Shown: one piece after another, positions 3,650 through 47,617 of the stretch
Position numbering within the stretch: the first letter of the stretch is position 1
How the letters are laid out: every line of letters starts with the position of its first letter
DNA from: Alcanivorax borkumensis SK2
Lineage (GTDB): Bacteria; Pseudomonadota; Gammaproteobacteria; Pseudomonadales; Alcanivoracaceae
Length of the DNA: 64,000 nt
Direction: 5' to 3'
NCBI RefSeq assembly: GCF_000009365.1
Contig: NC_008260.1
Coordinates: forward strand, 2,019,501 to 2,083,500
Translations under genes and position numbers: made by a program
Notes under the pieces: model-generated
Seen by the model: the letters and a program-made list of their open reading frames with translations, nothing else
Databases searched by the model: none
What the model was told of the DNA's origin: nothing

Positions 3650-3759
<110 letters not shown>

Positions 3760-7806: not shown

Positions 7807-8367
7807 GTGTCTTTGCGCCATGCCATACTTGTCCTATTACAAGATCAGGAAGCCAGCGGTTATGACCTCGCTCGCGAATTTGCCAACAGTATCGGGCTAG
7901 TATGGAACGCCACCCACCAGCAGATCTATCTTGAGCTGGGTAAGCTCAACGATCAAAGCATGGTGAAATATCGCCATATTCCCCAAGATGGCAAACCAGA
8001 CAAAAAACTATACCGGATCACGGATGAAGGGCGTGACGAGTTGACTCGTTGGCTTCGTAAACCCGCAGCTCCACCTCGAGTTCGTGACGCTTTTATGGTG
8101 AAGATTGCTGGCGGAAGCATGTCCGACAGCGCCACCATCATTCGAGAGCTAGACGACCAGACGGATCTACGGCGTGAGCGACTGAACACCTTTGAAGCCT
8201 TGGCCGCTAAACTGAATGACACCCATCAGGACCGTGACCTGTTCACTTACCTAACCCTGCGCCGTGGCATTCTGGACCAACAAACTTGGCTACGCTGGGC
8301 CGACGAAGTCCGTAGCGCCCTGGAAAAGCGCGAAGAGCAGGCTTCCTCCGTACCCACATCGGTGTAA
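7807..8367 (+). CDS. PadR-family transcriptional regulator
   Basis: The 186-residue protein is a PadR regulator: a winged helix at the N-terminus (MSLRHAILVLLQDQEASGYDLAREFANSIGLVWNATHQQIYLELGKL, then 'DKKLYRITDEGRDELTRWL', the wing) and a C-terminal helical dimerisation domain of the Vir_act_alpha_C type (RVRDAFMVKIAGG...LTLRRGILDQQTWLRWADEV). The GTG start at 7807 has GAGGAG six bases upstream. Its stop overlaps the start of a DUF1853 gene remnant, so it was probably the first gene of a padR-DUF1853-DUF2804 unit before the island entered. Ligand and targets are unknown. It may bind the inverted repeat upstream of itself. Confidence 0.9.
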   Translation: MSLRHAILVLLQDQEASGYDLAREFANSIGLVWNATHQQIYLELGKLNDQSMVKYRHIPQDGKPDKKLYRITDEGRDELTRWLRKPAAPPRVRDAFMVKIAGGSMSDSATIIRELDDQTDLRRERLNTFEALAAKLNDTHQDRDLFTYLTLRRGILDQQTWLRWADEVRSALEKREEQASSVPTSV

Positions 8368-8555
8368 TGCCCCATAGTGCAACAGAGACGCTCGCCCGCC
8401 AACTGGGCTGGCTAGTACACGCTCCCGCTCTGTTGCGCTGCTCTCCATTTCTGGATGCCAGTATTCTACTGCAGCATGAATTGCAGGCGGACCCGGCATT
8501 ACTACGCGCCGAGCGGCCGAACGATTACACGTTCACGCCGCGCCACGGCGTCTAG
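8367..8555 (+). pseudogene. 5' remnant of a DUF1853 gene
   Basis: The 62-codon frame starts in an ATG overlapping the padR stop (TAATG) and reads '...ETLARQLGWLVHAPALLRCSPFLDA', which resembles the opening of DUF1853 proteins ('RDLAWLLxSPPLL'). It stops at 8553-8555, far short of the roughly 280-330 residues usual for the family. A matching C-terminal part is found 10 kb away at about 18535-18930 on the same strand. I infer that one gene was split, with loss of its middle, when the island between them arrived. The family assignment rests on remembered consensus. Confidence 0.6.
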
Positions 8556-8580
8556 GATTACTCTTTGAGCATTGTAATCC
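8555..8580. repeat. 7-bp inverted repeat at the left island edge
   Basis: GGATTAC (8555-8561) and GTAATCC (8574-8580) form a perfect dyad with a 12-base loop. It starts at the stop codon of the DUF1853 remnant. A C7-T7 run follows, so a weak terminator or the scar of an element end are both possible. Confidence 0.4.
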
Positions 8581-8589
8581 GCCCCCCCT

Positions 8590-8785
8590 TTTTTAACCGC
8601 CCCCATGAGTAGAAGGTTAGCCCACCGGTAGTAGCTGGGTCGGGGGTACTCCGCCGATGACTGAATTCGGCCGTTCGTTATTGTATTGCCACAGCCACTG
8701 GGTCGCCGATATACGCGCTTATGATTTTAGGAGTAGCCTTTCACGTTGCGTAAATACATAAAGCACAGCCCGAATCTCCACTGTA
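8590..8785 (-). mobile_element. internally deleted IS3-family remnant
   Basis: Two transposase fragments are joined here on the reverse strand. 'WRFGLCFMYLRNVKGYS' (8730-8785) matches 'FGLCFLYLRNVKGF' of the degenerate IS3 element at 16.2-18.5 kb, also at nucleotide level. It is followed by 'LWQYNNERPNSVIGGVPPTQLLPVG' (about 8610-8710), the usual 'YNxERPxxALGGxTP' C-terminus of IS3 OrfB. The middle of the gene is missing. No intact open frame or clear terminal repeat remains. Confidence 0.65.
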
Positions 8786-9640
<855 letters not shown>

Positions 9641-9657
9641 CTATGCCACTACAACCC

Positions 9658-10419
9658 TCAATGGCTAGGGAGCACCCAGCTAATGACGGTATTTATCTCC
9701 CTCCTCCAATATACGGTGACGGTATGGGCGTTTAAAAGCTGCGCGGACAAATTAGTTACTAGGCGAAGTTCTAGCTCACAACGCTCAGTATGAATTGACG
9801 ATATTTTTACATCTAGGAAATCAAAATATCGCCCCACCGCTGGGTGCAGTGCTTTAAACAGGGCCTCCTTTGCTGAGAATACCACTGTAAAACCATATTC
9901 TATATTTACAAAGTTTCCGTGAATAAACTCTAAGTCCTCATGACTGAGAATACTTGGGCTCAAGAGGGCTCGATCGTCTGCTGAAATCACTTTTTCGACA
10001 TCAATTCCAGGAGAAACAAGCGGTGCCTGAGCAGGACGAGGCATCATCATACAGAATGCACTGTCTCCATGATGACTGATTGAACCCAACACTGTCGGCG
10101 GCCACTGCGGCTCACGCCGCAAACCAATGCCAATAATCTCTGGCCTTAAATCTAATTGAATAAAAGCATTATGTGCTGCAATGCGTCCAGCAAGAAATTC
10201 GGCTTTGCGTGAGGCTGTCGCATTGCTTAGCGTGGCGGGAAGGGGAGTTTTGTAACGTGCAAAGAGGGCATCATGGTAATGCGCGGCGTCAAAGCGGCAG
10301 TGATAGCAGGTGCCGGTAAAACCGCTGAGTATAACGGTTTTACCAGCAGTAAAAAAATTCGATAGCCCCTGTGTTAATGGCTTAATCACGTCGCCGTAAC
10401 TTGCGTGGATAGCGCTCAA
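9658..10419 (-). CDS. Sfp/EntD-type 4'-phosphopantetheinyl transferase
   Basis: The 253-residue protein should move phosphopantetheine from coenzyme A to the carrier-domain serine of the NRPS in the same operon. It shows the three PPTase signatures: 'RKAEFLAGRIAAHNAF' (71-86) and 'GSISHHGDSAFC' (112-123), the Mg-binding GIDVE (138-142), and FSAKEALFK (181-189). This layout is EntD-like. The start is a TTG at 10419 that overlaps the glycosyltransferase stop (TTGA), implying translational coupling; a GTG ten codons in is the alternative. It is the last gene of the NRPS-GT-PPTase operon, with a decayed IS3 element right after it. Low GC like its operon partners. Confidence 0.92.
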   Translation of the reverse strand: MSAIHASYGDVIKPLTQGLSNFFTAGKTVILSGFTGTCYHCRFDAAHYHDALFARYKTPLPATLSNATASRKAEFLAGRIAAHNAFIQLDLRPEIIGIGLRREPQWPPTVLGSISHHGDSAFCMMMPRPAQAPLVSPGIDVEKVISADDRALLSPSILSHEDLEFIHGNFVNIEYGFTVVFSAKEALFKALHPAVGRYFDFLDVKISSIHTERCELELRLVTNLSAQLLNAHTVTVYWRREINTVISWVLPSH

Positions 10420-11717
10420 GTATCAGCCGATAACGTGTTGGCATTGAGGTCGGAAGAATCGAGTAAGCCCCATTGTGTCAATAGATCTATCGCACATTGA
10501 ACGCCATTTTCCTCGGCCACTTTTACTGCCATTTTAGCGGCGGCGTTTTGCATCTCAGGTACACAAGCCATGTTGATGGCGGCGACTAATTTCTCAGCGG
10601 TGAGGTCTTTGCGTTTAATCATTTTGGGCGCCACACCATTTTGCTCAAGTCGCCAAGCCCAGAACGGTTGATCACCAAAAAATGGAATAACCACCGAAGG
10701 AATGCCCGCGCGAATGGTTGCGGCCGTGGTACCCGCACCGCCATGATGAACCGCGACACAAACCTTGGGAAATAGCCAGTCATGCGGCGCAGCCTCAATA
10801 ACTAAAATATTAGGATTATTATTGAACTTTGCTTTAAGCCCCCCCCATCCCGTCGCAATAATTGCTCTGCGTCCACTTTCTGCAACGGCTTCATAGATGA
10901 GGGCACTAAGATTATCGGTGTCGTCACTTAGCATACTGCCAAAGCCGATATATATTGGTTTGTCGCCAGTAGCGAGAAACTGCTCTAACTCCGCTGATGG
11001 CTGCCACTGTGATTCACCGTTTAAAAACCAATTTCCTGTCACTTGCACACCCGCGGGCCAGTGGCGTGATCGTGGAAGTAAGGCGGGACTGTAGCCGTAA
11101 AGAATCCTGCGGTCTTCTATCTTTTGTTGATAATACGGGCCATACCAAGGTAGTGCCGGCAGTTGAAGGGCTTTACGCACTGGACTGTAAGCTGCACTTA
11201 GCATACGCCATGTAATGACTCGCAAAAGGTGGTAAAGCCATTCGTTAACCCTGCCGTTACGTGGTTTGCTCGGTGGTGTCAGCATCATCGGCGGAATGTC
11301 AGGGCAAGGGGTTACTGGCTGCAAATGCGTTTCTACCGTCGGGATATTCAGTGCTTCGCCCAGAGAGTTCGCTAGCACCGCCATCATGCCATTGCCTAAC
11401 AGTAAATCAGCATCTTTAGCGGCGGCCAACCCTTCTTCAGCCCAGTGTCGACCCATATCCTTAAGATGCTTGCGCGCGGTGTTCATTAAGGCCAAGGGAT
11501 TCAGGCCGCGTTGAATAGCACGCGGATCTTTAGCCATAAGTTCAAAGAAATCTGCGGTCAAGGGCGCATATCTCAGGCCGTGATTTATAACCAAGTCCTT
11601 ACAGGTTTTACCACTGGCGATACAGACCTTATGGCCCGCAGCCTGCAATCCTAAACCCAGAGCGATAAAGGGCCTAACGTCACCCTGAGTGCCGATACTA
11701 AAGATGGTAATATTCAT
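10416..11717 (-). CDS. UGT-type glycosyltransferase (GT1, predicted lipid glucosyltransferase)
   Basis: The 433-residue protein is a GT1/GT-B fold glycosyltransferase, like sterol glucosyltransferases and rhamnosyltransferase RhlB. The N-terminal domain opens MNITIFSIGTQGDVRPFIALGLGLQAAGHKV, the classic acceptor-domain start. The donor-binding C-terminal domain has 'PIYIGFGSM' (254-262), HHGGAGTT (324-331) and 'PFFGDQPFWAWRLEQNGVAP' (345-364), the PSPG-like box, where the DQ pair contacts the sugar. From the operon I infer that it puts glucose on a hydroxyacyl chain in the cytoplasm; UDP-glucose as donor is inference. It lies about 120 bases after the NRPS gene and overlaps the PPTase start. 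No signal peptide or obvious membrane segment. Confidence 0.9.
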   Translation of the reverse strand: MNITIFSIGTQGDVRPFIALGLGLQAAGHKVCIASGKTCKDLVINHGLRYAPLTADFFELMAKDPRAIQRGLNPLALMNTARKHLKDMGRHWAEEGLAAAKDADLLLGNGMMAVLANSLGEALNIPTVETHLQPVTPCPDIPPMMLTPPSKPRNGRVNEWLYHLLRVITWRMLSAAYSPVRKALQLPALPWYGPYYQQKIEDRRILYGYSPALLPRSRHWPAGVQVTGNWFLNGESQWQPSAELEQFLATGDKPIYIGFGSMLSDDTDNLSALIYEAVAESGRRAIIATGWGGLKAKFNNNPNILVIEAAPHDWLFPKVCVAVHHGGAGTTAATIRAGIPSVVIPFFGDQPFWAWRLEQNGVAPKMIKRKDLTAEKLVAAINMACVPEMQNAAAKMAVKVAEENGVQCAIDLLTQWGLLDSSDLNANTLSADT

Positions 11718-11839
11718 TAACAGCCTAAATATGGTAGTGATGTTTAAGCATAATTACTGCTCTTTTACAGCGCTAATAAGTGCCTCGCACTTGACACCTT
11801 GTACTGAGGTTTCACGGTAGTTCATTTGTACGCCACATT

Positions 11840-14800
11840 TTATGGCATAAGTGAGTCAGCGATTAAGGGGCCGGTTTTCGTTAGCGCAGGTGCGTCGAAC
11901 ATATCTTGGTGATGGCAGTCCACGTGATGAATCGTGAGTTTGCCAACATACTCTTGCCAAATATCAGCGCTGTTGTGCAGTACATCGACCATGTCAGTTT
12001 CTACTGTTTCAGTTGCGGCAATAAACAGCATTGCAGCTTTGATTTTCCCTGGCGTGAACTGGCGGGAAATAACAAGATTATTTTCGATAATCAGCCTAAC
12101 GCTCTCTATAATATTGCCATTACTTTGCTGCATTTCTTTCACAAAAGGGAGGTTGTGAATATCATATTCGCGGCACAACAAATCGCTTAAATTGGCCATA
12201 CTTTCTTCGCCTTGAGGCAAAGAGTCCGAGGCCAAACCCATAAAAGTCAATGCACTTTGTACTAATTGTGCTTCGTCTGCTAACTGCGCTGGCTGCTGCA
12301 CATAAGGGTAGGAATCCAACACTGCTAAATAACCTATTTCCTCGCCTTCAGCCTCTAGGAGTCGTGCGATTTCATGTGCCACTAATCCACCTAAGGACCA
12401 GCCCAATAGTTTATACGGCCCTGCTGGCTGCACGCGTCGCAGTTGTTCAATATATTCGCCAGCCATTTCTGTGATGCTTGTAGGTAAACCTAAACCTGCA
12501 GCCCCATGTTGTTGGGGTTCGGTGGCTAAACCTCGGGCTTGCACACCATAAAGCTGTTGTTCTTTATCGAGATAGCGGGTTAAACCGCTGTAGCTCCAAC
12601 TTAAACCAATTACCGGATGGATACAAAACAGCGGGCTTGCGGTGCCAGAGGATTTAAGCGGTAACATCATGTCCAAGGGGTCAACAGATTGATGATGTTC
12701 TAATTGCGCAGCGAGTTCTGCGATTGTGCTGGCTTCAAAGATGGCGGCGAGAGGAATATCCTGAGTAAGCAACTCACGTAAACGCGATACCATTCTTGCA
12801 GCTGTTAGAGAGTCGCCGCCTAGGTCAAAAAAGCTATCGTGAATACCGATTCGTTCACGCCCAAAAATCTCACACCATAAAGCCGCGAGCTGTGTTTCTA
12901 GCGTTGTACGAGGTGCGACATAACCAAGAGAGGCTTGCCAGGTCGGCTCCGGCAGGGCGTTTCGATCTAACTTGCCATTAACGTTGGTGGGCAAGGTATC
13001 GACACACATAAACACCGATGGAATCATATAATCAGGTAAGCTTTGCGCTAAGCGCTTACGCAACACTGCAGTATCAACTATTGCGCTCTCTCCGGTGTCG
13101 AGCCTGCAGGGAACAAAGTGCGCGACTAACCTTTTCTCGCCGTCCGGATTTTCGCGAAGGGTGACAACGGCTTGTTTTACACCCTCGCAACGTTGGATAT
13201 TTGATTCTACATCTTCAGCTTCTATACGAAAACCACGGATTTTAATTTGAAAATCATTACGGCCCAAATAATCTAATACACCGTCTGCGCGCCAACGAAC
13301 TAAATCACCGGTTTTATATAAGCGACCAGCCCCAAAGGGGTTTTCGATAAAACGCTCTGCGGTAAGTTCAGGCCGATGTAAATAGCCTTTTGCTAAACCA
13401 ACACCGCCAATATACAGTTCCCCAATCGCTCCTAAGGGCACTGGCTGCATCTCTTGATCTAACACATATACTGTCGTGTTTTGGATCGGACGACCAATCG
13501 GCGGCGCGTCTAAATCGTCGCCATCTAACTTCATGATGGTAGACCAAATCGTAGTTTCAGTTGGGCCATAGAGATTAATAATAGGATGGCCTAATTTGCG
13601 CATTTTATGGGCGAGTTGCGCAGGCAATGCTTCCCCCCCCACCAAGGGCCGTACATTGCTAATTTGATCGGCATAATCTGCCAATAATGCTTGCCAGTGG
13701 GAAGGTGTCGCCTGCATTAGGTTAATTTTTTCATCGGCAATAAGCGCTGCAAGCTTTTCGGGATCTTTTGCAATCTCGCGACTTGCGATCACCACCTCAG
13801 CACCACTGATCAATGGCAAATATAATTCAAGCGCGGCAATATCAAATGCGACGGTCGTTAAAGCTAATAATTTATCATTGGCATGAACTTGCAGTTCATC
13901 CTGCATAGCTAACAAAAAATTCAATAACGCCCGGTGGCTGATTTCAACCCCTTTAGGGCGCCCAGTTGATCCAGATGTATATATAACATAGGCACTGGTG
14001 TTGCCGTGAATAGGTGCAGGGTTAATACTTGTTTCAGCTAAGCCAGTATCGACAGTATCTAAATTAAGTACAGCGACATCGTCTTTAAATAATGCACGGC
14101 TAATAGACGACGCAGATAAGATCAGCGTAGGCTTACCCTCACCCAATACCAATGCCAAGCGCTCTGCAGGCGCCGTCGGATCTAACGGCAAATAGGCGGC
14201 ACCAGTTCTCATTATGGCGAGAAGAGCGATTGGCATAGATTCATCGCGGGGAAGAGCAACTGCAACAATGTCGCCGCTGCCAATGCCACGCTGGATTAAG
14301 GCGTGGCTTAACCTAACGACTTCACTCTGTAGTTGCTGGTAAGTGAGTTTTTTGTCACCACTTGTAAGAGCTATCGAATCCGGCGTTTTTATCGCTTGGC
14401 TATCAAATAGCGCCAGCAAATTAGTGTCTGGTAATGGCTTCTCAGTTTTATTCCAGTCATCTAAGATGCATTTTCTTTCAAATTCAGACAACAGGCTTAT
14501 GTTTCCGATTGGTGCGCTAGGATCGTTAACAACCGAACTAATTAGCCGCACAAAACGGTCTCTGTGAGTATCTAAATCATGTTGAGAATACAGGGCGGGG
14601 TTAGCATCCAAATCAATACGCAAGCCCGCATGAGCACCACGATCATAGATAAACACCGTTAAATCTTCGACGGTGCCGTTGGAAATATTATGGGCGAGGC
14701 ACTGATGACCGCCAAATCGCAGGTCATAATCGAAGGGCTCTATATTCACGCCGACCCAAGAAATTTGCTGTCCTTGGCCTAGCAAGCCTAGCTCACGGCG

Positions 14801-15925
14801 CAAATCCTCATAGCGAAACATCTGATGTCGCAAAGCCTGCCTGACAGCTTTAGATACTTGCGCTGTTAAAGTGCTTAAATTGAGCTCAGCATTCATCGCC
14901 AAACGAATCGATACTGCATTGGCCATCATGCTCGGAATACTGCGCATATCACGATTGGGGCGAGCAGATACGGGCATACCAAATACCAAATCATCTGCGC
15001 CTGTCATCCGATATATATAGGCCGAAAACAAACCAATTAGTATCTGAGGCAAACTCGCCTTAGTGTCTTTTCCTAAATTACGCAGTGTATTGCTAGTGTC
15101 TATAGATAACTGAGCGGTGCTCCTGCGCATTCCCCCCGCGCGCACTGCATTGTGTCGGGTAAGCGACACCGGATCGGGTAATCCGCTAAGTTGATTTATC
15201 CAGTAATTACGATCACGCTCATACCGTGCAGACTCACGGTAGCGCTGCTCTTGCTCATGCTGAATGCGCAAAGGTAGAAATGGACTAGGACCAATGTCTC
15301 GATGCTCAAGTAAAGCATTATAAATCTCGGCGCATCGCCGTGAAATAATGCCGGCACTAAAACCATCAAGCACTAGGTGATGGCTACGTTGATACCAAAA
15401 ATAACACTGCTCACTAATTTTAAAGAGTGCGCAAAACCACAGCGGGTCACAGGCATGATCAACAGGCCGATGGAGCTCATCCATCATCCATTTCTCTGCT
15501 TCAGACCTAGGATCAGTGGCCCCGCTCAAGTCTATCACCGGAAACTCGCTTTTATAGCGATCTAGAATAATTTGCTTAGGACCGTCTGCTGTGTCGTGAA
15601 TCTCGACTCGAGTAGTCTCAGCCTCTTGGGTAATTTGCTTAAGCGCGGCAATGAAAATATCGACTTTAATTTCACCAAGAATTTCACAATATTCCGCTAT
15701 ATTATATACCGCATCTTTAGGCCCAATTTGCTCACCAAACCATAAACCACGCTGTGCGCTGGCCAAAGGGAGGGATTTGATTTCCGGCGAGATAGATCCA
15801 CCAAGGTTTGTGCAATCCTGTTGCTCATTGAACTTGTCTTCAGGCTGGGTGCCCCGTAATGAACCATTTGATGAATTAACAAGCGCTACCGTTGAGCTTG
15901 ATTGAGCGGCTATACGTTTTTTCAT
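11840..15925 (-). CDS. single-module NRPS, C-A-T-TE, predicted to load glycine
   Basis: This 1361-residue enzyme has the EntF layout. Condensation domain (about 50-480): HHLVLDG at 182-188 with the catalytic second His. Adenylation domain (about 500-990): YTSGSTGRPKG, 'NLYGPTE', 'YKTGDLVRW', 'GRNDFQIKIRGFRIE', NGK with Lys985. Carrier domain: LGGDSL with Ser1039 for phosphopantetheine. Thioesterase (about 1095-1361): GWSLGG with Ser1177, Asp1204 and probable His1339. The pocket positions, aligned to GrsA, read D695, I696, L699, Q738, L761, G763, L785, I793, W794, K985, i.e. DILQLGLIWK, the glycine code. I infer that the C domain joins a 3-hydroxyacyl donor to carrier-bound glycine and the TE releases the N-acylglycine. 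First gene of the operon; GC lower than the flanking core genes. The start has only a weak ribosome site. Confidence 0.95.
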   Translation of the reverse strand: MKKRIAAQSSSTVALVNSSNGSLRGTQPEDKFNEQQDCTNLGGSISPEIKSLPLASAQRGLWFGEQIGPKDAVYNIAEYCEILGEIKVDIFIAALKQITQEAETTRVEIHDTADGPKQIILDRYKSEFPVIDLSGATDPRSEAEKWMMDELHRPVDHACDPLWFCALFKISEQCYFWYQRSHHLVLDGFSAGIISRRCAEIYNALLEHRDIGPSPFLPLRIQHEQEQRYRESARYERDRNYWINQLSGLPDPVSLTRHNAVRAGGMRRSTAQLSIDTSNTLRNLGKDTKASLPQILIGLFSAYIYRMTGADDLVFGMPVSARPNRDMRSIPSMMANAVSIRLAMNAELNLSTLTAQVSKAVRQALRHQMFRYEDLRRELGLLGQGQQISWVGVNIEPFDYDLRFGGHQCLAHNISNGTVEDLTVFIYDRGAHAGLRIDLDANPALYSQHDLDTHRDRFVRLISSVVNDPSAPIGNISLLSEFERKCILDDWNKTEKPLPDTNLLALFDSQAIKTPDSIALTSGDKKLTYQQLQSEVVRLSHALIQRGIGSGDIVAVALPRDESMPIALLAIMRTGAAYLPLDPTAPAERLALVLGEGKPTLILSASSISRALFKDDVAVLNLDTVDTGLAETSINPAPIHGNTSAYVIYTSGSTGRPKGVEISHRALLNFLLAMQDELQVHANDKLLALTTVAFDIAALELYLPLISGAEVVIASREIAKDPEKLAALIADEKINLMQATPSHWQALLADYADQISNVRPLVGGEALPAQLAHKMRKLGHPIINLYGPTETTIWSTIMKLDGDDLDAPPIGRPIQNTTVYVLDQEMQPVPLGAIGELYIGGVGLAKGYLHRPELTAERFIENPFGAGRLYKTGDLVRWRADGVLDYLGRNDFQIKIRGFRIEAEDVESNIQRCEGVKQAVVTLRENPDGEKRLVAHFVPCRLDTGESAIVDTAVLRKRLAQSLPDYMIPSVFMCVDTLPTNVNGKLDRNALPEPTWQASLGYVAPRTTLETQLAALWCEIFGRERIGIHDSFFDLGGDSLTAARMVSRLRELLTQDIPLAAIFEASTIAELAAQLEHHQSVDPLDMMLPLKSSGTASPLFCIHPVIGLSWSYSGLTRYLDKEQQLYGVQARGLATEPQQHGAAGLGLPTSITEMAGEYIEQLRRVQPAGPYKLLGWSLGGLVAHEIARLLEAEGEEIGYLAVLDSYPYVQQPAQLADEAQLVQSALTFMGLASDSLPQGEESMANLSDLLCREYDIHNLPFVKEMQQSNGNIIESVRLIIENNLVISRQFTPGKIKAAMLFIAATETVETDMVDVLHNSADIWQEYVGKLTIHHVDCHHQDMFDAPALTKTGPLIADSLMP

Positions 15926-16189
15926 TGACGTTGGTCTCGATAGCTGAGTATTTTCAATCGCAGATTCAAATCAGAAGCACACCACCCTTTAAGTGGCAAT
16001 GACCTTGATATGCTCTCTCATTAAATCCGGTGGGGTTTTATAATTCAATATAATTCTGAATCTTCGATTAAATCTTCTGCGTTCTTTAGCCGCTTTTTTT
16101 TTATTTTTTAACGTCCGTACTTTTTGGCCAGAACCGCCTCTTTAATTCGTTCGAATTTCATTCAAATGTAATAACCTCCCATTTTAACT
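15926..16189. other. AT-rich leader region of the NRPS operon
   Basis: About 260 bases separate the NRPS start from the IS debris. The stretch is very AT-rich (for example around 16020-16110) and must hold the operon promoter unless transcription enters from the IS side. I could not find a -35/-10 pair with acceptable spacing, nor an inverted repeat that would suggest an operator. Confidence 0.4.
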
Positions 16190-16896
16190 GGAGCTAAAAG
16201 TAGAGGTATGGGCCAAGGACCATATTTTCCATTCATGGTTGTAAAGCCATCGCCACTGAGTTGCACAATCCTGAACATCAATAATTGAGTGGAAACTGTA
16301 GCGGCTTACCTGGCTGAATAAATGACAGTGTGATGCCATTCTTATCAGTCTAGGCTGCGAGTACACCACGGAGATATTCCCACCCATTGTCGCCACGCAA
16401 TCGCTTGAGCTTACCTCGGCATTCAATCAGCCGATCCCGTGTTCTGATAACCCCCTCAGCGGACAAGGAGAAATCCACCTCTATACTCTGGCCTTATCGA
16501 TTACATTCATCGGTCACGTTGAGAAACCGGTAACTGCGGCCATAGCCCAACTGGTCATGCATGAAGTTCGCCGACCGATGCTCAGCCGGTACCGACAGTT
16601 CCTCAAGTTTCTCACGCTTGAGCCGCTTCTTAGGCTTGATTCGAAGGTTAAGCTCCAGCTCTCGGCAAATGCGGTACACCCGCTTGTGATTCCATGGAAA
16701 ACCCTTCACGTTGCGCAAGTACAAGAAACATAGACCGAAGTTCCTGTTGCGCTGGTTGCGAGTTAACCGCAGCAGCCAATCGGCGATGGCGGCATTTTCG
16801 TCGCTGAATCTGGCCTGATAACGGTAACTGCGTTCACTCATACTATAGGCCTCGCAGGCCACTGATCTTCCCCCGACAAAATAGACACGCTTCATT

Positions 16897-17785
16897 TCAC
16901 GCTGCCATTCTCTCGTATTCTGCCGGGGCCACGTAGCCAATGCCAGAGTGTAACCTTTTCTGGTTATAAAACTGGTTGATGTAGCCACTCAGAACCGCTC
17001 GCAACTCTTGCTCATCCTTAAACGATACGCCATGGATCACTTCAGCTTTCATACTATGCAAGAACGATTCCATATGCGCATTGTCCGTGCAGTGTTTAGG
17101 CCGATTCATACTGGGTCTGATGCCGTGCCTGCCTAGCTCGTTCTGGATCAAGTACGCGCCATACTCCACTCCACGATCCGTATGGAATATTAGACCGGAA
17201 CACGGCATTCGCACCCGTAAAGCATGGCGCAAGGCCCTCAGAGTCAGATTAGCTGTCTTCCTGTCCCCCAGCGACCAGCCAATCACCTTCCTCGAATAGA
17301 CATCCAACACGACCGCCAGGTACTGCCATTGCCGGTTAACCTTGATATAAGTGAGATCCGCTACCCACTGCTGATTTACCCCGGTTGGAGCGGGCCTATT
17401 CAGGCGCAGGTTCTTGTGGCGTTGATAGAATCGCTCCACCCCCGGCACCCTGCGGTACAGCTTTGCCACACGCCCCACCAGCGAAGCCTCCCTCATCAGC
17501 CTCTCAACACGCTTACGGGCCAATCCGGACGCCTTCGTGACGCAAGGCCTGATGCACTCTCGGGCTGCCATAGACGCCCCGGCAATCCCCATGGATCCGG
17601 CGCACTTTCTTCAGCAAGCATCTATCTTCTCGGGCTCGTGGCGGCTCCTTGCGTTTGCACCACGCATAGTAGCCACTCCTCGACACACCCAACCAATTGC
17701 ACAGGTACCTGACGCCTAGTCTTCGTCCGTGTTCCTGGATGAATCCAAATCGCTCTGATGTCGATCCGACAGATACCGTTGCCAC
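16897..17785 (-). pseudogene. IS3 OrfB transposase, broken by a single-base frameshift
   Basis: OrfB supplies the DDE integrase core. The N-terminal part (17785-17513) reads 'FGFIQEHGRRLGVRYLCNWLGVSRSGYYAWCKR...YGSPRVHQALRHEGVRIG'. The frame then shifts and continues as 'RKRVERLMREASLVGRVAKLYRR...NQQWVADLTYIKVNRQWQYLAVVLDVYSRKVIGWSLGDRKTANL...FHTDRGVEYG...NAHMESFLHSMKAEV' to 16897. One extra base in the GGGC run near 17517 accounts for the shift, so the enzyme is probably dead unless this is a sequencing error. OrfB starts at the G of the A-AAA-AAG heptamer (17791-17785) in OrfA, the usual -1 frameshift site that makes the OrfAB fusion. Confidence 0.85.
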
Positions 17786-18090
17786 TTTTTTAGAAGGTCA
17801 TTTTCCTTCTGCAAGCGGGTGTTTTCCCGTTTGAGCTTATCGAGCTCTTTCAACTCCTCGCCGGAGGGAGCTTTCTTTTCTTTCATCACACCAACACGCT
17901 TTCGGCCATCTGGCTTGATCTTTCCTTCACGGTATTCCTTGCGCCACCTCGAAAGCATCATCGGGTGGATATCCAACCCAGCTGCCACTTGCTGAACCTG
18001 AATGCCTTCCTGACAGCTAAGCTCAACGGCCTTTACTTTAAAGTCTGTCGAATACCGCCAAGTCTTTCTCGGATTGTTGTATCGGGGCAT
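17716..18090 (-). CDS. IS3 OrfA (transposase DNA-binding subunit)
   Basis: The 124-residue protein begins MPRYNNPRKTWRYSTDFKVKAVELSCQEGIQVQQVAAGLDIHPMMLSRWRKEY, the helix-turn-helix of IS3 OrfA. It ends with a leucine-zipper-like segment (ELDKLKRENTRLQKENDLLKKWQ) used for OrfA/OrfAB oligomerisation. The frame runs past a slippery A-AAA-AAG heptamer at 17791-17785, where a -1 shift would enter OrfB. ATG 18090 has GAGGAGGT just upstream. It appears intact. Confidence 0.9.
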   Translation of the reverse strand: MPRYNNPRKTWRYSTDFKVKAVELSCQEGIQVQQVAAGLDIHPMMLSRWRKEYREGKIKPDGRKRVGVMKEKKAPSGEELKELDKLKRENTRLQKENDLLKKWQRYLSDRHQSDLDSSRNTDED

Positions 18091-18534
18091 ATGCCACCTC
18101 CTCTGATTAAGAGAAGGTGTCCACTAAAGCGGGGGAACTACACACCCGCATACTGACGCCCTGTTAACCAACCGCTGCTTTAGAAAGCTCGCGCCTTTGG
18201 CAGGGCTTATCACTTTTTTCGACGGCTTCCTTACGTAGCTCAGACTTGAGGCGCTCCTCAGCGTACATCTTTTTCAGCCGCCGATTCTCTATCTTCAAGC
18301 TCCTTCAGGCTAGCCATTATTGAGGCATCCGTGCCACCGTATTTGCTGCGCTACTTGTAAATTTAGCACTGCTCAGCTATTCCCGGCACAGCTCAGGTAC
18401 CGGAACACCGCCTTCGGTTTGCTTGAGAATAGCCATGACTTGGTTGTCAGTAAATTTTAATCGTTTAATGCAAAACCTTCTGCGCATAGAGCACGAGAAT
18501 ACTCTAATTTTGGCTCCTGCTAATTCCTGGGGGA

Positions 18535-18930
18535 TTATGCCGATATCAATCAGAGATTGCCCGCGCTCAGCGAGTAAAACAAGGCGGGGAAGAAAACGGC
18601 CAGCCCCTGCTAACACGCGGCAGCCTCTTCTATCACTGCGACACTCCCAGCGAAGGGGAAATGCTGGCCGCTGGCCACGAGCACGGATGGTGGCGAACCA
18701 TACATGAGTTGGATGAGGGTACTAGGTCCATCATTGATCGTCCGTTCTGGACGCCCCCGTTTATGTCGGACAAAGAGCCCACTTTCGTTGATCCCCCTTC
18801 ATTGATTGACTATGTTGGATCAAACTCTCGCCCCTCATGGTCACAAACCCTCTCCATGACCAACCGGGCTTCATTATACCTGTCAGCTGGCCGACCCTAT
18901 GAAATCACAACAACCGCCGGCCTTAGTTAA
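18535..18930 (+). pseudogene. 3' remnant of the DUF1853 gene
   Basis: The frame reads 'RYQSEIARAQRVKQGGEENGQPLLTRGSLFYHCDTPSEGEMLAAGHEHGWWRTIHELDE...PFWTPPF', ending at 18930. The LxRGxLFY and GWW-x5-EL elements match the C-terminal half of DUF1853 as I remember it. Upstream stops at 18487 and 18500 and the neighbouring IS debris show that the gene has no start here. The 5' part lies at 8367-8555 in the same orientation. The end overlaps the DUF2804 start by about 30 bases, fitting a former padR-DUF1853-DUF2804 operon. The exact break point on this side is uncertain by tens of bases. Confidence 0.6.
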
Positions 18931-19933
18931 TGATCAAGGCCAGGTCGCTTTCGGCGTATTCCCGCACACTGTTGCTACCATCAACGGTCGTGAAGCGGAT
19001 TATCGCACCCCCATGGGCAAGCCGGCGTCGTCTTTTACTCGGCATTTTCATTACAAGCAGTTCCAGTACTTCGGCATTATCAGCGATGAACTTCTAGCCG
19101 GTTGCGCATTTGCCCACACGGCCTACTTGGGCATGGCTTTTTTCTATCTTTTTGAGCCGCAAACCGGCGTTCTCCACCAGTATACTTGGCGCTCACCATT
19201 AGGCAAAGGGTTGCACATGTCGCCTTCTCCACGACAAGGAGAAAGCGTATTTCAGCAAAAGAATGTGGTTATCCGCCTCGGTTACCAGCAGGATAGTGTA
19301 GGTGCTCTCAGCAAAAGTCTATCAGTGAAGTTAGACGACCTAACCCTCCATGCCCAGATGGACGAAGGCACAGATTTTCAACCCATGTCTTTGTGCACCC
19401 GCACCGGTATTAATGGTTGGGTGTATGCCAATAAAGTGGCAGGCAAAGCCGTCACCGGATCACTGCAGCGCCAAGGCAAGCATACTGACCTGACTGCCTT
19501 AGATGCCAGCGGGCACCATGATTTTTCCGCCGGCTATATGCGCCGTGAAACCTTTTGGAATTGGGCCTGCCTGTCCACCCGGGTGGGCGACACTCGCGTC
19601 GGACTGAACCTATCCTGCGGTGTCAATGAGACAACCTTTTCCGAAAACTGCTTGTGGATTGATAATGTCATGGTCCCTACCGGCGGGGTGCTATTTGATT
19701 ACAATCGTGATGATCTGATGCAACCTTGGGATATCCATAGCCTCTGCGGGCGTGTAAACCTGCAGTTCACTCCCAACGGGAACCACAAAGAGCGCCTTAA
19801 TTTGGGCCTCTTTGCCAGCAACTTTAATCAGCTGTTTGGCCACTTCGATGGCGAACTTCGCCTGGATGACGGGCGCCGACTTTGCATCAAACGCCACTAC
19901 GGTTTTGTCGAGGAGCAATACGCAAAATGGTAG
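18899..19933 (+). CDS. DUF2804 family protein
   Basis: The 344-residue protein belongs to DUF2804, whose members look like lipocalin-type or carotenoid 1,2-hydratase-like beta structures and have no settled role. Visible features are 'FHYKQFQYFGIISDELLAGCAFAHTAYLGMAFFYLFEPQTG', 'NKVAGKAVTGSL', 'DASGHHDFSAGYMRRETFWNWACLS' and 'GVNETTFSENCLWIDN', which recur in the family. No signal peptide or membrane helix is evident. ATG 18899 lies inside the DUF1853 remnant end. Its stop overlaps the start of the DUF4282 gene, so the pair is probably cotranslated. Since the island removed the upstream gene body, its present promoter may differ from the ancestral one. Confidence 0.8.
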   Translation: MKSQQPPALVNDQGQVAFGVFPHTVATINGREADYRTPMGKPASSFTRHFHYKQFQYFGIISDELLAGCAFAHTAYLGMAFFYLFEPQTGVLHQYTWRSPLGKGLHMSPSPRQGESVFQQKNVVIRLGYQQDSVGALSKSLSVKLDDLTLHAQMDEGTDFQPMSLCTRTGINGWVYANKVAGKAVTGSLQRQGKHTDLTALDASGHHDFSAGYMRRETFWNWACLSTRVGDTRVGLNLSCGVNETTFSENCLWIDNVMVPTGGVLFDYNRDDLMQPWDIHSLCGRVNLQFTPNGNHKERLNLGLFASNFNQLFGHFDGELRLDDGRRLCIKRHYGFVEEQYAKW

Positions 19934-25349: not shown

Positions 25350-25439
25350 TGGCGGAGAGGGCGGGATTCGAACCCGCGATACAGTTTCCCGTATGGCTCC
25401 TTAGCAGGGAGCTGGTTTCAGCCACTCACCCACCTCTCC
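25350..25439 (-). tRNA. tRNA-Ser (GCU)
   Basis: The reverse strand folds as a class II tRNA: GGAGAGG acceptor with CCTCTCC, D arm GTGAGTGGCTGAAACC, anticodon loop CTGCTAA giving GCU, a long variable arm (CATACGGGAAACTGTATC) and the T arm GGGTTCGAATCCC. Discriminator G and an encoded CCA follow (CCA at 25352-25350). The long variable arm and anticodon identify serine, reading AGC/AGU. A strong terminator follows. Confidence 0.97.
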
Positions 25440-47122: not shown

Positions 47123-47558
47123 TCCCCCGGAACTGGCGCCGCGCGGCAAAATCCTTACAATCTTCACCTCTTTAAGCCCCGGTAGCTCAGTTGGGTGAGT
47201 GCGGGGGGGGCCAAAGCGTGCTTTGGCCGAACGAACGCGAAGCGGATACCGCCGCTTTGCCGGCGCCCGCAGGGCGAGTAAGCGCCGATAAAATAGCCAC
47301 TTGCTCCCCCATAACTGGCACCGCGCAGCAAAATCCTTACAATCGTCACCTCTTTAAGCCCCGGTAGATCAGTTGGGTGAGTGCGGGGGGGGCCAAAGCG
47401 TGCTTTGGCCGAACGAACGCGAAGCGGATACCGCCGCTTTGCCGGCGCCCGCAGGGCGAGTAAGCGCCGATAAAATAGCCGCTTGCTCCCCCCATAACTG
47501 GCACCGCGCAGCAAAATCCTTACAATCGTCACCTCTTTCAGCCCCGGTAGCTCAGTTG
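47123..47558 (+). repeat. 183-bp tandem direct repeats with tRNA-Arg 5' fragments
   Basis: A unit of about 183 bp starts near 47123 and again near 47304, with a third partial copy that runs into the intact tRNA-Arg. Each contains '...CAAAATCCTTACAATC(T/G)TCACCTCTTT' and then GCCCCGGTAG(C/A)TCAGTTGG, the first 19 bases of the tRNA (47176 and 47358). In the first two copies the tRNA sequence changes after that to GTGAGTGCGGGG and a perfect hairpin GGCCAAAGC-GT-GCTTTGGCC (first copy 47209-47228). These are decayed tRNA duplications; the minus-strand long frame across them is an artefact. Confidence 0.88.
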
Positions 47559-47617
47559 GATAGAGCAAGCGCCTCCTAAGCGCTAGGTCGGACGTTCGAA
47601 TCGTCTCCGGGGCACCA
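47541..47617 (+). tRNA. tRNA-Arg (CCU)
   Basis: The sequence folds as a tRNA: acceptor GCCCCGG with CCGGGGC, D arm AGCTCAGTTGGATAGAGCA, anticodon stem GCGCC/AAGCGC-side with loop CTCCTAA giving CCU, T arm GGACGTTCGAATCGTCT, discriminator A and encoded CCA (47615-47617). CCU reads AGG arginine codons. Two truncated 5' copies lie upstream. The region of the tRNA 3' end shows no integrase gene. Confidence 0.96.

What the first reader, a model, noticed from the sequence alone, without database searches (positions are those of the whole stretch)
9658..15925. Glycine-loading NRPS, glucosyltransferase and PPTase operon: likely glycine-glucolipid biosurfactant pathway
The sequence shows a compact minus-strand operon of a C-A-T-TE NRPS, a GT1 glycosyltransferase and a Sfp/EntD-type PPTase. 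The A-domain pocket reads DILQLGLIWK by alignment to GrsA, which is the glycine code. Alcanivorax borkumensis is known to make an anionic glucose lipid whose hydroxyacyl chain is linked to glycine, and I recall a report tying a cluster of this type to it. Together the three genes give glycine loading, glucosylation and carrier activation.
Basis: partly seen in the sequence, partly recalled or inferred. Interest (0 to 1): 0.9.

Follow-up and report, generated by a model that had tools for sequence, protein, structure and literature searches.

The report
Horizontally acquired glycine-glucolipid gene cluster
An oil-eating marine bacterium carries a three-gene set, apparently acquired from another marine bacterium, that probably builds its glycine- and glucose-bearing surfactant, whose genes were still unproven in the papers we could read.

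Summary
Confirmed: a minus-strand C-A-T-TE NRPS (11840-15925), GT1 glycosyltransferase (10416-11717) and Sfp/EntD-type PPTase (9658-10419); A-domain code DILQLGLIWK. The genome is one 3,120,143-bp contig, recalled as Alcanivorax borkumensis SK2. The genes fit ABO_1784/1783/1782, described in 2013 as a 'short NRPS' of unknown function (PMC3849588).

The glycine-glucolipid reading is well supported but unproven. The C domain is nearest to lipo-initiating C domains, the GT to sterol glucosyltransferases, and published congeners (Gly, traces proposed as Ala) fit one Gly module. No mutant or assay was found.

Added here: (1) The operon lies in a ~10-kb low-GC island with transposase remnants; in 16 of 16 other genomes of the genus the two flanking genes lie ~0.82 kb apart, too close to hold it, and the GT is in 1 of 46 family genomes. 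(2) The NRPS falls inside a Zhongshania clade (83% identical). (3) NRPS-GT pairs occur in 31 of 80 GT loci, from Proteobacteria to Acidobacteriota; 19 of 29 readable codes are close to the window's. (4) Ten of ten Zhongshania/Spongiibacter/Neomelitea/Microbulbifer loci have a sulfotransferase upstream that the island lacks, predicting sulfated relatives. How four hydroxyacyl units are joined remains open.

The parts
11840..15925 (-). Mono-modular NRPS, 1361 aa, C-A-T-TE; fits ABO_1784 of PMC3849588
   Evidence: ORF; Pfam domains; gene order as in PMC3849588
14465..15775 (-). Condensation domain (residues 51-487), starter/lipo-initiating type, motif HHLVLDG
   Evidence: Pfam; motif; best solved relatives RzmA-Cs 291 bits and CdaPS1-Cs 203 bits, then ObiF1 181, EntF 161, all others 110 or less
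13379..14407 (-). Adenylation domain core (residues 507-849); holds the first nine positions of the code DILQLGLIWK
   Evidence: Pfam; extraction; EntF control
12971..13210 (-). Adenylation C-terminal subdomain (residues 906-985), ends at code residue K985
   Evidence: Pfam
12704..12892 (-). Thiolation (PCP) domain (residues 1012-1074), LGGDSLT
   Evidence: Pfam; motif
11894..12634 (-). Thioesterase domain (residues 1098-1344); S1177, D1204, H1339, taken as the triad, invariant in 30 of 30 aligned rows
   Evidence: Pfam; column count
10416..11717 (-). GT1-type glycosyltransferase, 433 aa, predicted glucosyltransferase (fits ABO_1783)
   Evidence: Pfam; nearest solved relatives sterol 3-beta-glucosyltransferase, 199 bits
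9658..10419 (-). Sfp/EntD-type 4'-phosphopantetheinyl transferase, 253 aa, TTG start overlapping the GT stop by 4 bp (fits ABO_1782)
   Evidence: ORF; 4PPT_N and ACPS; EntD-like, below cut-off
8575..18546 (.). Inserted island: no alignment to sister genome G007, which has about 250 unaligned bases of its own there; against G009 the alignment stops at 8503 and resumes at 18549
   Evidence: blastn; flanking genes 817-832 bp apart in 16 of 16 other genus genomes
8857..9640 (-). Decayed transposase pieces left of the operon (weak HTH_Tnp_1, rve, rve_3 matches)
   Evidence: E 0.003, 0.0058, 0.00063, all below the curated cut-offs; a fourth left piece, 8727-9041, matched nothing; tblastx to the right-hand remnants, E 4e-17
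16494..18090 (-). Transposase pieces right of (upstream of) the operon, IS3-like by their domains (my inference)
   Evidence: rve and HTH_Tnp_1 above cut-off, HTH_21 below it
7807..8367 (+). PadR-family regulator, left flank of the insertion site; conserved in the genus, not part of the island
   Evidence: Pfam; 17 of 17 genus genomes
18899..19933 (+). DUF2804 gene, right flank of the insertion site; conserved in the genus
   Evidence: Pfam; 17 of 17 genus genomes

Best explanation
The three genes are the biosynthetic cluster of the glycine-glucolipid of Alcanivorax borkumensis (the stated confidence is for this). The PPTase arms the carrier domain (inferred from family). The A domain loads glycine (code shown, activity inferred). 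The starter C domain N-acylates it with a 3-hydroxyacyl group (type shown, substrate inferred) and, about as likely as not, goes on to join further 3-hydroxyacyl units by ester bonds on the carrier-bound chain up to four (inferred, weakest step). The TE releases the free glycine carboxylate (triad residues shown, hydrolysis inferred). The GT then adds glucose from UDP-glucose to the terminal hydroxyl (family shown, donor and acceptor inferred). The operon is a horizontally acquired island most closely related to Zhongshania clusters.
For: ORFs and domains. Code DILQLGLIWK with EntF control. C domain nearest RzmA-Cs and CdaPS1-Cs, both lipo-initiating (identities from PMC7804268, passages). GT nearest sterol 3-beta-glucosyltransferase, 199 bits, against 27 bits for the only listed chain named rhamnosyltransferase. 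TE triad residues invariant in 30 of 30 rows. Product chemistry, PMC10684412 passages: Gly as main amino acid, traces proposed as Ala and Gly2, glucose-free tetramers and a trimer-Gly, no glycine-free form found; its authors propose stepwise attachment starting on glycine, glucose last. The only other locus with C-A-T matches in the whole-genome search reads Orn/Orn/Ser/Orn-like, so no other Gly-loading NRPS module was seen. Island and origin.
Against: No mutant, expression or enzyme result was found in the papers listed (one search listed only 25 of 589). The ester-chain builder is unidentified and iterative use of the C domain has no direct support. An older report, as cited in PMC6669457, found glycine-free glucolipid in supernatants, which would not fit a chain grown on glycine; PMC10684412 did not confirm it. 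10 of 29 relatives have departing codes. An RhlA homologue was not looked for, and the other candidate GT, ABO_2215, was not tested. Glycine meaning of the code and the species name rest partly on recall.
Confidence: 0.85

Rival explanations
1. Chain-first (a variant within the same cluster-to-product assignment): another enzyme (RhlA-like, PHA-type or TesB-type) makes the tetrameric 3-hydroxyacyl ester as a CoA or ACP thioester, and the NRPS only caps it with glycine in one condensation; the GT then glucosylates.
For: Starter C domains are described as acylating the first amino acid from an acyl-CoA or acyl-ACP (PMC7804268, passages). The operon itself holds no dedicated polymerising enzyme. 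An older report of glycine-free glucolipid, cited in PMC6669457, would fit.
Against: The trimer-glycine congener led the authors of PMC10684412 to propose growth on glycine, and they found no glycine-free form, although a preformed trimer could also be capped. In the clustered flanks no further gene family recurs across the phyla beside NRPS and GT.
Confidence: 0.4
2. The cluster makes a different, so far unseen glycosylated N-acyl-glycine, and the known glycine-glucolipid comes from other genes (for example ABO_2215 as the GT).
For: No genetic proof was found. ABO_2215 was also named as a candidate in the 2006 genome paper, as cited in PMC6223728 and PMC10710537.
Against: The domains predict the amino acid, linkage type and sugar of the known main product. 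The only other NRPS locus seen in the genome has no Gly code.
Confidence: 0.1
3. Serrawettin/enterobactin-like mono-modular NRPS (Ser-loading, cyclising TE) with a chance neighbouring GT.
For: Same C-A-T-TE architecture; EntF is a near full-length solved relative.
Against: Code differs: relatives L010-L012 (37-38% identical) read the Ser code DVWHFSLVDK and show no GT match in the roughly 1-1.5 kb of flank held. NRPS-GT adjacency recurs in 31 of 80 GT loci across phyla.
Confidence: 0.03
4. The operon is ancestral in the genus and was lost from the other species, rather than gained by A. borkumensis.
For: Only one genome per species was searchable; loss cannot be excluded in principle.
Against: GT in 1 of 46 family genomes (E <= 1e-50); same short flank spacing in 16 of 16 other genus genomes; NRPS nested among Zhongshania; GC 0.468 against 0.467 for Zhongshania locus L014 and 0.545 for the window; transposase remnants on both sides, weak on the left.
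Confidence: 0.05

Closest known systems
ABO_1782-1784 'short NRPS' of A. borkumensis SK2 and XALc_0364/0365, XALc_1145/1144 of Xanthomonas albilineans (PMC3849588, one section read)
   Same: Same architecture and gene order; starter-type C domains and a Gly signature (XALc_0364) reported for the Xanthomonas genes; the window genes fit the Alcanivorax example itself
   Different: The section leaves function unknown and makes no link to the glucolipid; it describes short NRPS and GT as overlapping, here they are 122 bp apart
Zhongshania aliphaticivorans / Z. marina loci (L014, L015)
   Same: NRPS 83/81%, GT 88/85%, PPTase 70/62% identical by tblastn, same order, same code
   Different: They carry a sulfotransferase gene upstream and other neighbours; DNA similarity to the window stops about 20-30 bp upstream of the NRPS
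RzmA (rhizomide) and CdaPS1 (CDA) starter condensation domains
   Same: Best solved relatives of the C domain
   Different: They start multi-module lipopeptides (recalled); here one module is the whole line
EntF / serrawettin-type C-A-T-TE synthetases
   Same: One-module architecture with TE
   Different: Serine code in EntF and in L010-L012; no GT match in the flanks of L010-L012; serrawettin comparison is recalled, not tested
RhlAB rhamnolipid pathway
   Same: A GT puts a sugar on a hydroxyacyl ester lipid; ABO_1783 is called RhlB-like in print
   Different: GT here is nearest sterol glucosyltransferases among solved chains; RhlA not looked for; no amino acid or NRPS in rhamnolipids (recalled)
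Rouxiella badensis glucoselipid operon glcABC (PMC12299268, passages read)
   Same: Makes a glucose lipid
   Different: Operon of an acetyltransferase, an acyltransferase and a phosphatase

Membership tests
Mono-modular NRPS with TE | C, A, T and TE domains in one chain with intact motifs | tested here: met
Starter (lipo-initiating) condensation domain | Closest sequence kinship to Cs domains rather than LCL/DCL domains | tested here: met
   RzmA-Cs 291, CdaPS1-Cs 203, ObiF1 181, EntF 161 bits, all others 110 or less. My own C-domain tree did not support it: the first C domain of the genome's other NRPS fell apart from this family, with long branches meeting
Glycine-activating A domain | Gly specificity code | tested here: met
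   DILQLGLIWK, reading control EntF; meaning of the code recalled
Glycine-activating A domain | ATP-PPi exchange with glycine | not testable with these tools
   Needs purified protein
GT1 UDP-glucose-dependent glucosyltransferase | Kinship to proven glucosyltransferases | tested here: met
   Sterol 3-beta-glucosyltransferase 199 bits, GtfA/GtfB/GtfD 95-117 bits; donor not shown
Sfp-type PPTase | 4PPT_N plus ACPS domains | tested here: met
Glycine-glucolipid cluster of A. borkumensis | Loss of product on gene deletion | not testable with these tools
   No published mutant seen in searches or in the 25 listed of 589
Rhamnolipid-type RhlAB pathway | RhlA acyltransferase | not tested
   No RhlA query was sent to any tool
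EntF/serrawettin-type Ser synthetase | Serine code | tested here: not met
   DILQLGLIWK against DVWHFSLVDK
Horizontally acquired island | Empty site in relatives, foreign composition, discordant tree, mobile-element remnants | tested here: met
   left remnants are weak, and no target-site duplication was sought

The most novel reading that the evidence does not exclude
A single starter-C/A/T/TE module works iteratively as both amide and ester synthase, building a four-unit hydroxyacyl chain on carrier-bound glycine. With its glucosyltransferase it forms a portable two-gene surfactant machine found from Proteobacteria to Acidobacteriota. A. borkumensis gained it from a Zhongshania-like donor without the sulfotransferase, so Zhongshania, Spongiibacter and Microbulbifer should make sulfated glycine-glucolipids and other Alcanivorax species should make none.
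Probability: 0.3. Interest if true: 0.8.

Novelty: new variant of a known kind. Interest (0 to 1): 0.55.

Why it matters
The A. borkumensis surfactant was discovered in 1992 (abstract of PMC10684412), and in 2023 its complete pathway was still called not elucidated (PMC10710537). A three-gene prediction makes it directly testable by deletion or heterologous expression. The island result says that a trait tied to a leading oil-degrading bacterium is a gain of that species: the GT was found in none of the 45 other family genomes searched (E <= 1e-50). The wider family gives named organisms in which to look for sulfated or otherwise altered glycine glucolipids.

Tried and rejected
Rejected: RhlB-like rhamnosyltransferase reading of the GT; Ser-loading EntF/serrawettin reading; ancestral gene with many losses.

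Led nowhere: promoter and terminator scan, counts below the shuffled means (11 against 11.9, 6 against 7.2); Rfam scan at gathering thresholds, two tRNAs and SRP RNA only, outside the island; a C-domain tree with EntF and the genome's other NRPS, where long branches met; a search for remnants of the sulfotransferase in the island, best E 0.45; paper search for Zhongshania and glycolipid, two papers, seen only as a listing; the Pseudosulfitobacter plasmid NRPS, 38% identical, whose neighbours in the annotated stretch include no GT.

Results against or weakening: 10 of 29 relatives with a fully read code depart from DILQLG[L/F][I/V]WK (Dyella DILWLGLVLK x4, two Lysobacter DIFQLTLVWK, two Granulicella DILQMGFIWK, Microbulbifer DVLQLGLVLK, Piscinibacter DVMQLGLVCK), so glycine may not be universal. 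L035 lacked the tenth position and L037 was cut by its contig end; both were left out of the count of 29, the 30-row counts and the trees. A PPTase match beside the pair was found in only 9 of 31 loci. 49 of the 80 kept GT loci show no NRPS match in the DNA held, some of them on short contigs; 280 relatives were reported, only the best 80 kept. The NRPS tree flags skewed composition in seven rows, four of them Zhongshania, and leaves the order within the window's closest three open. The empty answer carries the tool's warning that without a genome known to match it shows nothing.
Full report
What is there. Three minus-strand ORFs fill 9658-15925: a 1361-aa NRPS (11840-15925), a 433-aa glycosyltransferase (10416-11717) and a 253-aa PPTase (9658-10419). 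Pfam finds Condensation, AMP-binding, AMP-binding_C, PP-binding and Thioesterase in the first, GT28/UDPGT-type domains in the second, and 4PPT_N plus ACPS in the third. GT and PPTase overlap by 4 bp; NRPS and GT are 122 bp apart. The window is part of a single-contig genome of 3,120,143 bp, the size I recall for Alcanivorax borkumensis SK2. PMC3849588 (one section read in full) describes this order for SK2: short NRPS ABO_1784, GT ABO_1783, PPTase ABO_1782, function unknown; it reports starter-type C domains for the two Xanthomonas counterparts.

A-domain code. Aligning the NRPS with its relatives and reading the ten specificity positions gives DILQLGLIWK. As controls the same procedure gave DVWHFSLVDK for E. 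coli EntF, annotated as the serine-activating enzyme, and an Orn-like, Orn-like, Ser-like, Orn-like series for the genome's other NRPS locus at 2.384-2.400 Mb; that series fits an amphibactin-type siderophore (recalled). That DILQLGLIWK stands for glycine is recalled; the string was found in no held paper.

C domain, TE, GT. The C domain alone matches RzmA-Cs best (291 bits), then CdaPS1-Cs (203), ObiF1 (181) and EntF (161); everything else has 110 bits or less. PMC7804268 (passages) names 7C1H as RzmA-Cs, lists 7C1K with it, and treats CdaPS1-Cs as another lipo-initiating domain. S1177, D1204 and H1339, which I take as the TE triad, are invariant in 30 of 30 aligned rows. The GT's nearest solved relative is sterol 3-beta-glucosyltransferase (199 bits); the only listed chain named rhamnosyltransferase scores 27 bits. 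This speaks against the RhlB-like label that two papers take from the 2006 genome paper (passages), though RhlB itself was not compared.

Fit to the product. PMC10684412 (passages) reports glucose-(3-hydroxyacyl)4-glycine, minor congeners proposed as alanine and Gly2, glucose-free tetramers and a trimer-glycine, and no glycine-free form; its authors suggest growth on glycine with glucose last. An older report of glycine-free lipid in supernatants, cited in PMC6669457, is against that. A starter C domain, a Gly A domain, a releasing TE and a glucosyltransferase account for all parts except the three ester bonds. I propose that the C domain acts repeatedly, but a separate chain builder is almost as likely. 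PMC10710537 (passages) stated in 2023 that the complete pathway had not been elucidated. Searches (11, 1, 4, 8 and 5 papers; 589 papers, 25 listed) showed no paper, by listing, on a mutant of these genes; I opened passages of seven papers in all. Subscription papers are mostly not held, among them a 2022 paper on this lipid, so a published proof may exist.

Island. The GT is found in 1 of 17 genus genomes (E <= 1e-20) and 1 of 46 family genomes (E <= 1e-50); the NRPS in 1 of 17 (E <= 1e-200). In each case the one is the window's own genome. The PadR gene left of the operon and the DUF2804 gene right of it match in 17 of 17 genus genomes. From the coordinates the two matches lie 817-832 bp apart on one contig in 16 of 16 other genomes, and 10,534 bp apart here. 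Against G007, window 8575-18546 has no counterpart; G007 has about 250 unaligned bases there. Transposase pieces lie on both sides: clear on the right, weak on the left (3 of 4 left pieces matched, below cut-offs). GC is 0.468 for the NRPS and 0.467 for the Zhongshania locus L014, against 0.545 for the window; GC3 is 0.42-0.48 for the three genes against 0.57-0.64 for three genes outside the island. The NRPS tree puts the window with Z. aliphaticivorans and Z. marina (support 100/100), inside a clade of six Zhongshania rows plus the window (100/100); the order within the closest three is open, the root is a midpoint, and seven rows are flagged for composition. A gain from a Zhongshania-like donor is the simplest reading; a third party cannot be excluded, and no second A. 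borkumensis strain was examined.

The wider family. A scan of genome contigs with the GT reported 280 relatives and kept 80. In 31 of these 80 a C-A-T-TE NRPS match lies directly upstream (one cut by a contig end, one in two pieces): Zhongshania, Spongiibacter, Neomelitea, Microbulbifer, Nitrospirillum, Telmatospirillum, Piscinibacter, Lysobacter, Dyella, an alphaproteobacterial MAG and Acidobacteriota. Of 29 relatives with a full code, 9 read DILQLGLIWK and 19, these nine included, read DILQLG[L/F][I/V]WK; the other 10 differ. In 10 of 10 loci L014-L023 a sulfotransferase-family gene lies upstream of the NRPS on the same strand (clustering; sequences; three of the ten tested against Pfam, all PF13469). 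In L016 and L019 a short unassigned open frame lies between the two. A search of the window's genome with the L014 copy gave nothing at E <= 0.001 (which warns that it had no positive control), although two other PF13469 matches exist, and no remnant is seen in the island. I therefore predict sulfated products in those genera. Seven acidobacterial loci instead carry condensation-like proteins downstream, mostly in runs (family 4; one tested). As an outgroup, L010-L012 (37-38% identical, from 5 hits in 369 class genomes at E <= 1e-190) read the Ser code and show no GT match in the flanks held; L013, part of a 2242-aa frame, reads DILQLGLVWK with no GT match there.

Verdict. The cluster is known in print as genes but not, in what I could read, as the glycine-glucolipid cluster. 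The island, the Zhongshania kinship and the sulfotransferase-bearing relatives are additions made here; I did not search the literature for those points beyond.

Noticed in passing
G000:C1:2383876-2399734 (L129): A second NRPS locus with four A domains whose codes read Orn-like, Orn-like, Ser-like, Orn-like, as expected for an amphibactin-type siderophore (recalled).
   Followed up: partly
L014:688-1761 and the counterparts in L015-L023: A sulfotransferase-family gene lies upstream of the NRPS in 10 of 10 of these loci but not in the window.
   Followed up: partly
L033, L038, L044, L047, L052, L059, L073 downstream of the GT: Acidobacterial loci carry condensation-like proteins, often several in a row, perhaps acyltransferases that decorate the sugar.
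   Followed up: partly
L029, L030, L032, L034; L031, L036: Dyella (DILWLGLVLK) and two Lysobacter (DIFQLTLVWK) clusters have altered A-domain codes and may use another amino acid.
   Followed up: no
L039-L041: Agrobacterium vitis / Allorhizobium GT relatives at 45-46% identity without an NRPS match nearby; their acceptor is unknown.
   Followed up: no
G000:C1:1183941-1184582 and 1054136-1054435: Two PF13469 sulfotransferase-family matches elsewhere in the window's genome, far from the cluster.
   Followed up: no
L013: A 2242-aa open frame with a Gly-like code (DILQLGLVWK) but no GT match in the flank held.
   Followed up: no
window 3655-3751, 25353-25439, 47541-47614: Small SRP RNA and two tRNA genes, none at the island borders.
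   Followed up: no
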